Positions 1,539 to 9,520 of a DNA stretch of 22,997 nt are shown piece by piece. Each line of letters opens with the position of its first letter. The first letter of the stretch is position 1. Made by a program: the position numbers and the translations under genes. The DNA comes from a virus, in the IMG/VR virus record IMGVR_UViG_3300010883_005521, positions 1 to 22,997 of that record. The stretch is one strand, 5' to 3'. The notes below the pieces were generated by a model. It saw only the letters and a list, made by a program, of their open reading frames with translations. It was not told the DNA's origin and made no database searches.

Positions 1539-1555
1539 ACAAAAAGGAGAACCTG

Positions 1556-2062
1556 TTGAAACCTCAATATAAACTAACCTGCTGCGGAAGGACTTATATC
1601 AGCAGGGCAGATTTGGACAAAATAATTACCTGCCCGTACTGCAAACAGGTCAATCCGCCATCCGAAGAAGTAGATAAGGAAGACCAAGTATTCACTTTTG
1701 GGGGTTTTTCTGGAGATAAGAAGCACGACATAAGACCGTGGGGTTCTTACACAATCCTAATAGACGAACCAAACGTAAAGGTAAAAAAAATAACTGTTTT
1801 CCCTAAGCAAAGACTAAGCCTACAGCTTCATAGAAAACGACAAGAGCTATGGAAAATCATTAGCGGAAACGGCGTAATGACAGTTGGATGTGAGGAGTTT
1901 GAAATATCAGAGGGCGACAGGATTGAAATATCTAAGTATGAGGTTCACCGAGTAGAAAACAACGGTGAGTTCAACCTAGAGTTCATTGAGGTTCAAACAG
2001 GCGTGTGCCAAGAAGATGATATTGTTAGAATAGAAGACGACTACAACAGATTGGATAATTAA
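1556..2062 (+). CDS. zinc-ribbon plus cupin protein of the mannose-6-phosphate isomerase (type II) type
   Basis: The N-terminus carries four cysteines (C9, C10, C26, C29 in LTCCGRTY...ITCPYC), a zinc-ribbon-like unit. From about residue 58 there is a single cupin domain typical of the isomerase half of AlgA/ManC-type enzymes: RPWGSYTIL (60-68), VKKITVFPKQRLSLQLH, SGNGVMTVG, EVHRVEN (129-135), LEFIEVQTG and EDDIVRIEDDY near the end. The family interconverts fructose-6-P and mannose-6-P. Of the metal-binding residues H92, E97 and H131 are visible, but the usual second His of H-x-H is K94, so activity is uncertain. No guanylyltransferase domain is present. The start is TTG with AAGGAGA 5 bases upstream; no ATG fits. 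The phosphomannomutase-like gene lies two genes downstream, which supports a mannose-related role. Confidence 0.78.
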   Translation: MKPQYKLTCCGRTYISRADLDKIITCPYCKQVNPPSEEVDKEDQVFTFGGFSGDKKHDIRPWGSYTILIDEPNVKVKKITVFPKQRLSLQLHRKRQELWKIISGNGVMTVGCEEFEISEGDRIEISKYEVHRVENNGEFNLEFIEVQTGVCQEDDIVRIEDDYNRLDN

Positions 2063-2064
2063 AT

Positions 2065-2295
2065 ATGACCACTGCAAAGAAAACCTTAGACGTATACGAA
2101 ATTGGCACAGAAGTATCTCTAACAGAAGAGATTTCTGCTAAGATTATAACTGTTGCTATTCATTCAGACAACGTGATTCAGTATGAGTGCGCGTGGTGGA
2201 GTGGAGAGTCGAGAACGAGAGAATGGTTCGCCGCTAGCGATTTCTTTAAAGTGGGAGAACAAAAAGCCCCTGTAAAAATTGGATTCTTAAGATAA
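2065..2295 (+). CDS. small hypothetical protein, 76 aa
   Basis: The ATG at 2065 lies 2 bases after the preceding stop and the stop overlaps the next ATG (TAATG), so it belongs to the same operon. The product has a beta-rich pattern (YEIGTEVSLTEEISAKIITVAI, split here by strands; IQYECAWWSGESRTREWF) and ends in KIGFLR. This resembles small SH3-like or Tudor-like barrel proteins often seen in phage genomes, with a conserved YE-x-WW-G...WF core, but I cannot name a function. Its position between two apparent mannose-pathway genes may be incidental. Confidence 0.6.
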   Translation: MTTAKKTLDVYEIGTEVSLTEEISAKIITVAIHSDNVIQYECAWWSGESRTREWFAASDFFKVGEQKAPVKIGFLR

Positions 2296-2996
2296 TGAAT
2301 TACCTATTTGATGTAGATGGAACACTGACCGCCCCCAGACAAAAGATAAACAAACAGTTTAGACAAGAGTTTGGAACGTGGGTAAATGACCAGCAGCTTA
2401 TTGGTGACAAGGTATACTTAGTAACGGGATCAGATAAGAAAAAAACCGTTCAACAGATAGGGGTTTGTCTATACCGAACCTTTGATGGGTGCTATCAAAA
2501 CTGTGGAAATAAACTGTACGTAAAAAACAGATTAGTAAAAGAGTCACAGTGGAAGATTAGTGCAGATGCAAAGATTAGGATTTTTGAAATTATTAAAAAG
2601 AGCCTATGGTATGGCATCGCTACTTCCAATGTGGAAGAAAGAACTGGCATGATAAACATATCAACGGTAGGTAGAGATTGCACGAAAAAACAACGGCAAG
2701 AGTATAGTAATTGGGATGAATATAGTTTAGAGAGAGAGTCCATAGCTAAAACTATAAGAGAAGAGTATCCAGAGCTTGATGCGTCTATAGGAGGGATGAT
2801 AAGCATTGACATTTATCCTAAAGGTAAAAATAAGTCACAGGTAATAGATGATATGGTCGGTGAAACGGTTTTCTTTGGAGACAACTGTAAAGAGGGTGGA
2901 AACGACTATGAAATATCTAGGTCGGCAGATTTTTATTACGAAGTAAATAACGACGAGGACATGAGAAAACTATTAAGAACAGTAGGTAAAAGTTAA
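2295..2996 (+). CDS. phosphomannomutase-like HAD-superfamily enzyme (eukaryotic PMM type)
   Basis: The product strongly resembles eukaryotic-type phosphomannomutase (PMM1/PMM2), which converts mannose-6-P and mannose-1-P. Motif I is FDVDGTLTAPRQKI (residues 5-18), with the nucleophile D6 and acid/base D8. Other family blocks are GMINISTVGRDC (118-129), R134 in KKQRQEY, IGGMISIDIYP (165-175, D172), and FFGDNCKEGGNDYE (193-206) for magnesium binding. Length (233 aa) is slightly under the usual 245-250. Differences include QNCGN in place of the usual ENGL and KGKNK in place of DGWDK, so substrate preference could have shifted. It starts one base into the preceding stop (TAATG) and is followed one base later by the next gene. 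Together with the cupin protein it suggests a phage route toward mannose-1-P and, through a host guanylyltransferase, GDP-mannose. Confidence 0.85.
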   Translation: MNYLFDVDGTLTAPRQKINKQFRQEFGTWVNDQQLIGDKVYLVTGSDKKKTVQQIGVCLYRTFDGCYQNCGNKLYVKNRLVKESQWKISADAKIRIFEIIKKSLWYGIATSNVEERTGMINISTVGRDCTKKQRQEYSNWDEYSLERESIAKTIREEYPELDASIGGMISIDIYPKGKNKSQVIDDMVGETVFFGDNCKEGGNDYEISRSADFYYEVNNDEDMRKLLRTVGKS

Positions 2997-5228: not shown

Positions 5229-5588
5229 ATGATGCTCGAATTTCTTATGGCGTATGGACAACCCCCAAAGTGGGTAGGAGTTCTTGGCGCTATGACCTTT
5301 GTTGTTTTTGTTTTAGCCGCAGTATATAACGGTCTAACAAACCCAAAATACCAAAGAAAAACACCCATCAATTTGGACTTGTTTGAGATTGGGTATATAT
5401 TACCCAGCAAGACAGTGACTCCAGTAGCAACCAAAGACAATCCTATCTATAATGACTGCGTATTGGCGATGAGAAGCATGGGTTATAAAGCAGCGGAGTC
5501 AAAAAGCGTAGCCACGCGAATACTGGCAACGCACAATGTCGGATCTGTTGAGGAATTTATTACTATAGCACTATCTAAAGGGGCTTAA
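5229..5588 (+). CDS. membrane protein with RuvA C-terminal-like domain, 119 aa
   Basis: The ATG at 5229 has an ideal AAGGAG 8 bases upstream (5215-5220); an in-frame ATG at 5193 lacks one. The product has one membrane segment (about residues 15-36, VGVLGAMTFVVFVLAAVYNG), a linker, and a C-terminal three-helix stretch (about 74-119: DCVLAMRSMGYKAAESKSVA, then ILATHNVGSVEEFITIALSK) that looks like the UBA-like third domain of RuvA, which in bacteria contacts RuvB. Without the DNA-binding RuvA domains it would act as a membrane-tethered interaction module. It is the first gene behind the consensus promoter. The RuvA resemblance is by eye only and could be a generic helical bundle. Confidence 0.7.
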   Translation: MMLEFLMAYGQPPKWVGVLGAMTFVVFVLAAVYNGLTNPKYQRKTPINLDLFEIGYILPSKTVTPVATKDNPIYNDCVLAMRSMGYKAAESKSVATRILATHNVGSVEEFITIALSKGA

Positions 5589-6646
5589 TGTACAACATCA
5601 TTTCTCCCATTAACTCGCTAGGATATGGAATTGCAGGATTAAACATCTGCAAGGAACTGGATAAGAAATCCCCAGTTGCACTATTCCCCATTGGTCAACC
5701 GTCTGTCACAAGCAGGCAGGATCATGAAGCTATATCAGACATGATCGCAAACGCATCAATGCCTGACTTTAATGCTCCCTGCGTAAGGATATGGCATCAG
5801 CATGACATGTCTCAGTTCGTTGGCAGGGGAATCAAAGTAGGATTTCCTATATTTGAGCTTGACAATTTCACAAAATTAGAGAAGCATCACCTGTCTAGTG
5901 TAGACAAGCTGTTTGTCTGTTCTTCTTGGGCTAGGGACGTAATACTGTCTAAGGTTTCAATGAGCAGCGAGAATGTTCACGTGACACCACTTGGTGTTAA
6001 CACGGATATTTTCAAGCCGTCTAAACCAAACCAAAGAGACAAGACAGTGTTTTTTAATTGCGGCAAGTGGGAAATAAGAAAAGGCCACGATATTATTGTT
6101 GAAGCATTTAACAGGGCTTTTACTAAGTCTGACAATGTTGAACTTCAAATGATGTGTGAAAACCCCTTCAATACAGAGGACGAAGAAAAAAAATGGCACG
6201 ATCTTTATAAACGATCTGTCTTAGGCGATAGAATTACTATTCTAGGTAGAGTAGATACTCACGAAGAAGTGTATAATATAATGTCCAATGCAGACTGCGG
6301 GGTATTTCCATCTAGAGGGGAAGGTTGGAATTTAGAGCTTTTGGAAATGATGGCCTGCAATAAGGCGGTTATAGCCACAAACTACTCAGCGCACACGGAG
6401 TTTTGCAACAAAGACAATACCTTCTTGGTGGAGATAGACAGCCTTGAGCCAGCAAAAGACGATAAATGGTTCAATGGATTAGTGGGGAGCTGGGCTAGTA
6501 TTCAAGACTCCCAGATAGATCAAATCGCAGAATTTATGACTCACGTTCATAAGAATAAAGTAACATCCAATGCTAGTGGCGTTGAAACCGCTAAACAGTA
6601 TAGCTGGACTAACTCAGCCAACTTAATTACAGAGGTACTTTCTTAA
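5588..6646 (+). CDS. glycosyltransferase, GT4-like (GT-B fold)
   Basis: The 352-residue product shows the GT-B architecture. An N-terminal half with NSLGYGIAGLNICKEL (9-24) forms the acceptor side; the C-terminal donor domain starts with NCGKWEIRKGHDIIVEAF (157-174) and carries GVFPSRGEGWNLELLEMMAC (238-257), in which E245 and E253 form the EX7E motif that binds the nucleotide-sugar donor in family GT4. The donor sugar is not readable from this, but the mannose-type enzymes at 1556 and 2295 make GDP-mannose a reasonable guess. The acceptor could be phage DNA, a virion protein or the host surface. The ATG overlaps the preceding stop (TAATG). No signal peptide is present, so it acts in the cytoplasm. 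Confidence 0.87.
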   Translation: MYNIISPINSLGYGIAGLNICKELDKKSPVALFPIGQPSVTSRQDHEAISDMIANASMPDFNAPCVRIWHQHDMSQFVGRGIKVGFPIFELDNFTKLEKHHLSSVDKLFVCSSWARDVILSKVSMSSENVHVTPLGVNTDIFKPSKPNQRDKTVFFNCGKWEIRKGHDIIVEAFNRAFTKSDNVELQMMCENPFNTEDEEKKWHDLYKRSVLGDRITILGRVDTHEEVYNIMSNADCGVFPSRGEGWNLELLEMMACNKAVIATNYSAHTEFCNKDNTFLVEIDSLEPAKDDKWFNGLVGSWASIQDSQIDQIAEFMTHVHKNKVTSNASGVETAKQYSWTNSANLITEVLS

Positions 6647-8719: not shown

Positions 8720-9292
8720 ATGTCAACAGAAGACGTAACGCTAATGTGCACGATGCTGGGTAGCCTCTTAACCTTTCTGGCTGCCGTTTGGGTAAAAGTA
8801 CTAAAACCTGCGATGAAATTTATAGATAAGCACGACGATGTTGTGGGGTCTATAAAAACGATAGAGGAGGAACTCACGTGTAACGGAGGGTCAAGCCTTA
8901 AAGATGCTGTTGTAGCGCTCAATGTAACCTGCGTTAGAATAGAAGATAGGCAAACTGTAATGGAGCAGAGAACAAAAGCCTCTCTTCACTATAGTAAAAT
9001 ACCCCTATTTGAGACAGACGATAAGGGTAGATTAATCTGGTCGAACGCAGCGTTCAGGCAACTCACAGGACAATCCATGACAGACATAAAAGGTTTTGAT
9101 TGGCTAACATATATTCATGAAGATGAGAGAGTAGAGTTCCTAGAAGAGTTCAACTCTTGTCTTAGTATGAGTAGGAAGTTTTCAAAAGAAGTCGATACTT
9201 CTGATGGAAGAAATGTAAGGATGACAGGATACCCTTACAAACTAAATGACAATAAACAAGGAGGTTTTCTAATTAGTCTCACAGAGGCTTAA
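8720..9292 (+). CDS. membrane-anchored PAS-domain protein, 190 aa
   Basis: One N-terminal membrane helix (about residues 8-28, LMCTMLGSLLTFLAAVWVKV) is followed by a helical linker with CNGGSSLKDAV (54-64) and a coiled-coil-like stretch. A PAS fold covers about 93-189: IPLFETDDKGRLIWSNAAFR, LTGQSMTDIKGFDWLTYIHE (115-134), DERVEFLEEF and a terminal GGFLISLTEA strand. PAS domains bind cofactors or act as interaction modules, usually attached to kinases or cyclases; here no output domain follows. The N-out or N-in orientation cannot be decided. It precedes a two-helix membrane protein, so a role at the membrane in lysis timing or host sensing is possible but speculative. The RBS is an unusual G-run (GGGGGG) about 6 bases before the ATG. 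Confidence 0.82.
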   Translation: MSTEDVTLMCTMLGSLLTFLAAVWVKVLKPAMKFIDKHDDVVGSIKTIEEELTCNGGSSLKDAVVALNVTCVRIEDRQTVMEQRTKASLHYSKIPLFETDDKGRLIWSNAAFRQLTGQSMTDIKGFDWLTYIHEDERVEFLEEFNSCLSMSRKFSKEVDTSDGRNVRMTGYPYKLNDNKQGGFLISLTEA

Positions 9293-9307: not shown

Positions 9308-9520
9308 ATGGGTTCTAAAAAATGGTCACTTAATTGGACTGACGGTAAAAAACTAGGTCTTAACACTATTTTCGTATCGCTAGCCGCTGGCTTAACATAT
9401 CTCGGCACGCAGGTTGCTAATGTTGATTGGGGTTCTATGACAGCTCTCGCTGTGCCTATCGCAACACTGCTAATTGGGTCAGCATCCCAGTGGGCAAGGG
9501 ATAGTTCGTCAGAAGAATAA
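9308..9520 (+). CDS. small two-helix membrane protein, holin-like
   Basis: The 70-residue product has a basic N-terminus (MGSKKWSLNWTDGKK), two hydrophobic segments (about 17-38, LNTIFVSLAAGLTYLGTQVA, and about 45-61, MTALAVPIATLLIGSAS), and a charged C-terminus (QWARDSSSEE). This topology and size match class II holins, which form the inner-membrane lesion at lysis. There is no endolysin gene in the window to support it, so other small membrane roles are possible. GAAGG lies 6 bases before the ATG. It shares a transcript with the PAS gene and is followed by a terminator. Confidence 0.6.
   Translation: MGSKKWSLNWTDGKKLGLNTIFVSLAAGLTYLGTQVANVDWGSMTALAVPIATLLIGSASQWARDSSSEE

What the first reader, a model, noticed from the sequence alone, without database searches (positions are those of the whole stretch)
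1556..2996. Phage-encoded mannose-phosphate module: type II isomerase-like cupin plus eukaryotic-type phosphomannomutase
Seen: RPWGSY...VEN...FIEVQTG cupin blocks, and a HAD protein with FDVDGTLTAPRQKI and GGMISIDIYP that is close to PMM2. Known: the two families catalyse fructose-6-P to mannose-6-P and mannose-6-P to mannose-1-P. Inference: the phage boosts mannose-1-P and, through a host ManC, GDP-mannose, which the GT4 enzyme at 5588 could use for DNA, virion or surface glycosylation. The missing guanylyltransferase is the gap in the story.
Basis: partly seen in the sequence, partly recalled or inferred. Interest (0 to 1): 0.65.

Follow-up and report, generated by a model that had tools for sequence, protein, structure and literature searches.

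The report
Phage mannose-phosphate supply genes
An uncultured, T4-like virus of bacteria carries two neighbouring genes that very probably turn fructose-6-phosphate into mannose-1-phosphate, a building block for sugar coats; relatives of the virus carry the following steps too, so this looks like a virus-borne sugar-supply module rather than a lone borrowed gene.

Summary
ORF 1556-2062 is a cupin of Pfam PF01050 (type II mannose-6-phosphate isomerase domain, 1.3e-26) with an N-terminal Cys-rich (zinc-ribbon-like) extension. ORF 2295-2996 is a PF03332 (eukaryotic-type HAD phosphomannomutase) protein (2.6e-27); its AlphaFold model has PMM2/PMM1 as top PDB matches. Both keep the key active-site residues, and relatives evolve under purifying selection.

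Viral contigs fetched by the cupin alone all carry the PMM within about 5 kb, in several gene orders. Cellular relatives of this PMM often sit beside ManC, Gmd or Fcl, supporting a mannose pathway. The viral PMM groups with marine Flavobacteriales chromosomal genes, not eukaryotes.

Twelve of 15 clade records, however, encode an HldE-II-like HxGH nucleotidyltransferase, overlapping the cupin stop by 4 bp in six loci read closely. The 145-kb relative has Gmd-like and Fcl-like genes amid glycosyltransferases.

Best explanation: a viral nucleotide-sugar supply module for a surface or virion glycan. DNA glycosylation finds no support; use of the GT4 at 5588 is plausible but unshown. Phage type II isomerases were already known; I found no report of a phage PMM.

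The parts
1545..1549 (+). putative ribosome-binding site AGGAG, 6 bases before the TTG start of the cupin gene
   Evidence: sequence read directly
1556..2062 (+). standalone PF01050 cupin with Cys-rich N-terminus; predicted mannose-6-phosphate isomerase (type II-like)
   Evidence: PF01050 1.3e-26; Foldseek top match Thermococcus phosphomannose isomerase 7zvy; S88/Q90/H92/R95/E97/H131 invariant in the clade
1565..1660 (+). N-terminal zinc-ribbon-like extension (CC..CPYC), conserved in most viral relatives of this clade
   Evidence: alignment of viral cupins
2065..2295 (+). 76-aa ORF of unknown function packed between cupin and PMM; homologues lie near the module in L002, L026, L027 and L052
2295..2996 (+). 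HAD-IIB protein of the PF03332 (eukaryotic-type phosphomannomutase) family; predicted phosphomannomutase
   Evidence: PF03332 2.6e-27; AF2 pLDDT 92, top PDB matches PMM2/PMM1, TM mostly 0.8-0.87; catalytic and substrate residues conserved
5588..6646 (+). GT4-type glycosyltransferase, orthologous across the clade; possible but unshown consumer of the nucleotide sugar
   Evidence: PF13692 1.2e-18; orthologues in 10 clade records

Best explanation
The two genes encode a mannose-6-phosphate isomerase (cupin) and a HAD-type phosphomannomutase. During infection they draw fructose-6-phosphate from the host and turn it into mannose-6-phosphate and then mannose-1-phosphate. A nucleotidyltransferase (host ManC, or a viral one encoded elsewhere in this genome as in most relatives) activates this to a nucleotide sugar. 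Viral enzymes in relatives (Gmd-like, Fcl-like, NDP-sugar dehydrogenase, glycosyltransferases) indicate that the product goes into a glycan on the virion or the infected-cell surface. Shown here: families, residue conservation, purifying selection, linkage and neighbouring pathway genes in relatives. Inferred: catalytic activities, direction of flux, nucleotide base and acceptor.
For: Family matches. Key residues: PMM D6, D8, R15, R116, R134, S170 and D172 invariant; cupin S88, Q90, H92, R95, E97 and H131 invariant, which include the Ser/Gln/His/Arg residues used for phage MPIs in PMC9602691. dN/dS 0.05-0.25 between close relatives. Linkage: 14/14 cupin-selected loci have the PMM nearby with varied order; a second lineage (L005-L009) has PMM and cupin about 250 bp apart. 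HAD-PMM lies directly downstream of ManC in Alphaproteobacteria, near ManC/Gmd/Fcl in L066, L083 and L098, and near ManC in Prometheoarchaeum. Gmd-like and Fcl-like genes in G017 and G003; Fcl-like in G001, G002, G021; Gmd-like in G022. NDP-sugar dehydrogenase just upstream of the PMM in the closest relative.
Against: No nucleotidyltransferase of PF12804 or PF01467 in the 23-kb window and none visible among its ORFs; the record is a fragment. PF00483 was not found in the long clade contigs either. Gmd and Fcl matches fall below NCBI's equivalog cut-offs. HAD-IIB proteins change specificity easily: Lactococcus alpha-phosphoglucomutase is a homologue. The third residue of the cupin's HxH segment is Lys here, not His. 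No activity data.
Confidence: 0.7

Rival explanations
1. The HAD protein is mainly a phosphoglucomutase or sugar-phosphate phosphatase and the cupin has another sugar-isomerase role; the module supplies glucose-1-P for UDP- or dTDP-glucose, not mannose.
For: PF03332 contains Lactococcus alpha-phosphoglucomutase, matched at TM 0.73. L005-L009-type viruses pair PMM and cupin with an RmlA-like nucleotidyltransferase, best match glucose-1-phosphate thymidylyltransferase 3e-77. NDP-sugar dehydrogenase matches are best named UDP-glucose type.
Against: The phosphoglucomutase is more distant (19% identity) than PMMs (27-31%). Cellular orthologues sit with ManC. A glucose route would not need a PF01050 isomerase. 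Gmd-like and Fcl-like genes occur in relatives.
Confidence: 0.15
2. Catabolic role: the isomerase turns host mannose-6-P into fructose-6-P, feeding the pentose phosphate pathway and dNTP synthesis, as proposed for other marine viral isomerases (PMC4053976, PMC9602691); the PMM would run backwards.
For: Prior proposal in the literature. Ribonucleotide reductase and dUTPase lie in the same window. A class-I fructose-bisphosphate aldolase lies near the module in L017.
Against: A PMM is needed only for mannose-1-P and below, and a nucleotidyltransferase is coupled to the cupin in relatives; both point to biosynthesis. Glycan genes occur in relatives.
Confidence: 0.1
3. DNA glycosylation: the mannose donor and the GT4 at 5588 decorate hydroxymethylated virion DNA, as in T-even phages.
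For: T4-like gene set and a glycosyltransferase in the window.
Against: No thymidylate-synthase-fold (dCMP/dUMP hydroxymethylase) protein in the clade records searched, including the 145-, 100- and 87-kb contigs. Relatives carry 6-deoxyhexose glycan genes instead.
Confidence: 0.04

Closest known systems
Cyanophage type II mannose-6-phosphate isomerase (S-SCSM1 ORF118 and 11 environmental clusters; PMC9602691)
   Same: Standalone PF01050 cupin on a T4-like marine phage with the Ser/Gln/His/Arg motif conserved; in S-SCSM1 near Gmd, Fcl and glycosyltransferases.
   Different: Window cupin has a Cys-rich N-terminal extension, about 43% identity over the cupin domain, and a PMM partner; S-SCSM1 has no PF03332 protein.
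Eukaryotic phosphomannomutases PMM1/PMM2 (PF03332)
   Same: Fold and catalytic/substrate residues.
   Different: About 30% identity; the tree groups the viral proteins with marine Flavobacteriales PMMs (88/91 support), away from eukaryotes.
Bacterial manC + HAD-PMM gene pairs (Rhizobiaceae, Anderseniella and other Alphaproteobacteria)
   Same: PF01050-type isomerase domain next to a PF03332 PMM.
   Different: There the isomerase is fused to the guanylyltransferase domain; in the phage it is a separate protein and no guanylyltransferase is seen.
HldE domain II (D-glycero-beta-D-manno-heptose-1-P adenylyltransferase), for the nucleotidyltransferase of the relatives
   Same: HxGH superfamily; best specific match TIGR02199, E-values 5e-12 to 3e-19.
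   Different: Far below the family cut-off (181.5 bits), carries SSS near the C-terminus where HldE has STT (recalled), and no GmhA-type isomerase was found; not filed as HldE.

Membership tests
PF03332 phosphomannomutase (HAD-IIB) | Pfam curated score cut-off (22.4 bits) | tested here: met
   96.5 bits
PF03332 phosphomannomutase (HAD-IIB) | HAD nucleophile and acid/base Asp (DxDGT), motif II Ser, metal-site GD/GND | tested here: met
   D6, D8, S46, G195/D196, N203/D204 in the window; all invariant in 15 sequences except D196, nearly invariant
PF03332 phosphomannomutase (HAD-IIB) | Substrate-phosphate arginines and Ser/Asp of the cap (human PMM1 R28, R143, R150, S188, D190; numbering recalled) | tested here: met
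   R15, R127, R134, S170, D172 at matching spacing; R127 is Lys in one relative
PF03332 phosphomannomutase (HAD-IIB) | PMM fold closer than other HAD-IIB enzymes | tested here: met
   Foldseek: ranks 1-22 are all PMMs; PMM-like phosphoglucomutase next, phosphatases much weaker
PF03332 phosphomannomutase (HAD-IIB) | Mutase activity on mannose phosphates | not testable with these tools
   needs an enzyme assay
Type II mannose-6-phosphate isomerase (PF01050) | Pfam curated score cut-off (23.6 bits) | tested here: met
   93.5 bits
Type II mannose-6-phosphate isomerase (PF01050) | Conserved Ser, Gln, His and Arg of the 9-residue motif (PMC9602691) | tested here: met
   S88, Q90, H92, R95, invariant in 12 viral cupins; motif as described, residue matching mine
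Type II mannose-6-phosphate isomerase (PF01050) | Full bifunctional guanylyltransferase/isomerase protein (TIGR01479) | tested here: not met
   92.9 bits against 372.95; only the C-terminal domain is present. Single-domain type II forms are known
GDP-mannose pathway encoded in the window | Mannose-1-P guanylyltransferase in the same record | tested here: not met
   PF12804 and PF01467 absent from the window, none visible among its ORFs; the record is a fragment
HldE-II adenylyltransferase (gene of relatives, not in window) | TIGR02199 equivalog cut-off (181.5 bits) | tested here: not met
   45.9-69.2 bits
Gmd and Fcl (genes of relatives, not in window) | TIGR01472 (415) and NF047922 (500) equivalog cut-offs | tested here: not met
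   Gmd-like 359.6 and 402.5; Fcl-like 213-304 bits; best matches by far but below cut-off
T-even type DNA glycosylation | dCMP hydroxymethylase (PF00303 fold) encoded by the phage | tested here: not met
   none in the window or the searched clade records; fragments

The most novel reading that the evidence does not exclude
In this phage clade the isomerase, the HAD phosphomannomutase and an HxGH-superfamily (HldE-II-like) nucleotidyltransferase form a complete virus-encoded route from fructose-6-phosphate to an NDP-mannose, with a nucleotidyltransferase unrelated to all known mannose-1-phosphate guanylyltransferases replacing ManC and perhaps making ADP- or CDP-mannose that the host cannot divert. 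The window lineage would have moved or lost that third gene.
Probability: 0.2. Interest if true: 0.65.

Novelty: new variant of a known kind. Interest (0 to 1): 0.45.

Why it matters
Marine viral mannose isomerases have been read as carbon-catabolism genes (PMC4053976, PMC9602691). A linked phosphomannomutase, and in relatives a coupled nucleotidyltransferase with 6-deoxyhexose genes, point the other way: viruses building their own activated sugars. It also puts a eukaryotic-type PMM in phages, with marine Flavobacteriales as nearest cellular kin, and gives a concrete three-gene set to test.

Tried and rejected
Concern that the cupin lost its metal site (HRK instead of HxH): considered and softened. 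The third residue varies (His, Lys, Gln or Tyr) among viral relatives while Q90, H92, E97 and H131 are invariant, and the published motif lists Ser/Gln/His/Arg as key; unresolved without a structure. Origin from a eukaryote: not supported by the tree; eukaryote rows were partial sequences and one viral row with a long branch (L011) may be misplaced. Heptose pathway for the relatives' nucleotidyltransferase: no GmhA-type SIS_2 protein, though the closest relative has a split HldE-like kinase and nucleotidyltransferase. NMN adenylyltransferase: weaker match than HldE-II and no ISSTxxR motif (motif recalled). The S-SSM7 'NAD synthetase' next to its PMM does not align as a homologue of that nucleotidyltransferase. 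Near-identical phage records: none. GT4 donor specificity: PDB matches too weak to tell. Literature searches for a phage phosphomannomutase found none; the library holds open-licence papers only.

Full report
What is there. The window is a 22,997-base virus record with a T4-like gene set: rIIB, RNR subunits, dUTPase, PhoH, RecA-like, DnaB-type helicase, primase, deoxynucleotide kinase (most names read from the translations). No near DNA match exists among 50,697 phage records. The cupin ORF (1556-2062) and HAD ORF (2295-2996) are in a tight run of genes: cupin, 76-aa ORF, PMM and a deoxyribosyltransferase-like ORF are separated by 2, -1 and 1 bases. The cupin starts at TTG with an AGGAG 6 bases upstream.

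Families. The cupin reaches PF01050 at 1.3e-26 and the HAD protein PF03332 at 2.6e-27, both far above cut-off. The HAD protein also matches phrog_29277 at 3.5e-48, a phage family of unknown function. The PMM model (pLDDT 92) has PMM2, PMM1 and protozoan or fungal PMMs as its first 22 PDB matches, then the PMM-like phosphoglucomutase 4bnd (19% identity), then generic HAD-IIB phosphatases. The cupin model (pLDDT 78.5; the N-terminus is poor) has Thermococcus phosphomannose isomerase as top match.

Active sites. In 15 viral PMMs D6, D8, R15, S46, R116, R134, S170, D172, K180 and N203/D204 are invariant, D196 and R127 nearly so. In 12 viral cupins S88, Q90, H92, R95, E97 and H131 are invariant. 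The four residues that PMC9602691 uses for phage type II isomerases (Ser, Gln, His, Arg of the 9-residue motif) are among them (the residue-to-residue match is mine). The HxH second His is Lys in the window and varies among relatives. dN/dS of 0.05-0.25 between close relatives shows that both proteins are under purifying selection.

Linkage. Searching viral contigs with the cupin alone gave 14 loci; all 14 encode the PMM (in L025 it is cut by the contig end). Order varies: cupin-PMM (window, L002, L003, L018), PMM-cupin (L015-L017, L020, L026, L051) and PMM-nucleotidyltransferase-cupin (L052), with total spans of 1.4-6.2 kb. A second virus lineage (L005-L009, PMM 46-47% identical) has PMM and a shorter cupin about 250 bp apart plus an RmlA-like nucleotidyltransferase. 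The converse is looser: L010-L013 have PMM without a strong cupin.

The missing nucleotidyltransferase. The window has none (and ORFs; absence in a fragment), and PF00483 is absent from the long contigs of its clade. In 12 of 15 clade records a protein of about 145-155 aa with a GYFNPxHxGH motif (PF01467) lies near the cupin or PMM. Its start overlaps the cupin stop by 4 bases in L015, L016, L017, L020, L026 and the MAG contig L051. Its best specific match is HldE domain II, well below cut-off. The closest relative of the window (L002/G001; nrdA 85% identical) lacks it near the cupin but has, about 47 kb from the PMM, a split HldE-like kinase and nucleotidyltransferase followed by a PseC-like aminotransferase and an Fcl-like gene. 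Two larger clade records (G017, G021) also carry a PF12804-type nucleotidyltransferase, which in G017 lies near the Fcl-like gene.

Pathway context. In cells, the HAD-PMM lies directly after ManC in at least eight Alphaproteobacteria contigs, near ManC/Gmd/Fcl in L066, L083 and L098, and near ManC in Prometheoarchaeum. Among viruses, G017 (145 kb, same clade) has Gmd-like and Fcl-like genes with many glycosyltransferases; G003 has Gmd-like and Fcl-like genes near a PF01050 cupin. All Gmd and Fcl matches are below NCBI's equivalog cut-offs, so these names are likely but not certified. The NDP-sugar dehydrogenase-like gene directly before the PMM in L002 and a similar one in L017 leave open which final sugar is made.

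Origin. In the PMM tree the window clade is sister to marine Flavobacteriales genes plus L004/L006/L010-type viruses (88/91), away from eukaryotes. The Flavobacteriales copies looked at are chromosomal, beside a succinyl-CoA synthetase beta-like gene (named by eye).

Use. Most likely a glycan on the virion or infected-cell surface. The GT4 at 5588 has orthologues in 10 clade records, but these phages share most genes, so that is weak evidence that it uses this sugar. DNA glycosylation has no support. Virion glycosylation by phage enzymes has precedent in mycobacteriophages (Freeman et al. 2023, seen only as a citation).

Novelty. Phage type II isomerases were reported in 2022 (PMC9602691), and viral manA in 2013 (PMC4053976). 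I found no report of a phage phosphomannomutase in the held literature, although S-SSM7, P-TIM68 and some Acinetobacter phages carry one annotated as hypothetical or hydrolase. I rate it a new variant of a known kind: a known sort of metabolic module with a new partner set and a Cys-rich cupin.

Noticed in passing
L051 and L052 (contigs of SAR202 MAG OSU_TB57): Two contigs binned as a SAR202 (Chloroflexota) genome carry the window clade's phage genes (PMM, cupin, g4138/g4310, SSB/GT4 or rIIB); either a host hint or mis-binning.
   Followed up: partly
L110 11343-12495 (G001): Split HldE-like gene pair (kinase and nucleotidyltransferase, overlapping) on a phage contig, upstream of a PseC-like aminotransferase and an Fcl-like gene; no GmhA-type isomerase found.
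   Followed up: partly
L017 2253-3296: Phage-borne class-I fructose-bisphosphate aldolase (PF00274, 1e-97) beside an NDP-sugar dehydrogenase-like gene and near the module.
   Followed up: partly
window 8720-9292 and 9308-9520: ORF with a probable membrane segment and PAS-like sequence followed by a small holin-like ORF, both conserved in the clade (69% and 79% in L002); assignment by eye only.
   Followed up: no
L028 11992-12684 (S-SSM7 SSSM7_237), L029 9962-10708 (P-TIM68 gp126): Cyanophage proteins annotated hypothetical belong to the PF03332 phosphomannomutase family.
   Followed up: partly
L055, L060, L064: Marine Flavobacteriales carry the HAD-type PMM as a chromosomal gene between a PorP/SprF-like gene and a succinyl-CoA synthetase beta-like gene, away from sugar genes.
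   Followed up: partly
L042 9909-11489 and L041 6158-7753: Phage proteins joining a sugar nucleotidyltransferase-like N-terminal domain to a long C-terminal domain resembling a kinase (by eye).
   Followed up: no
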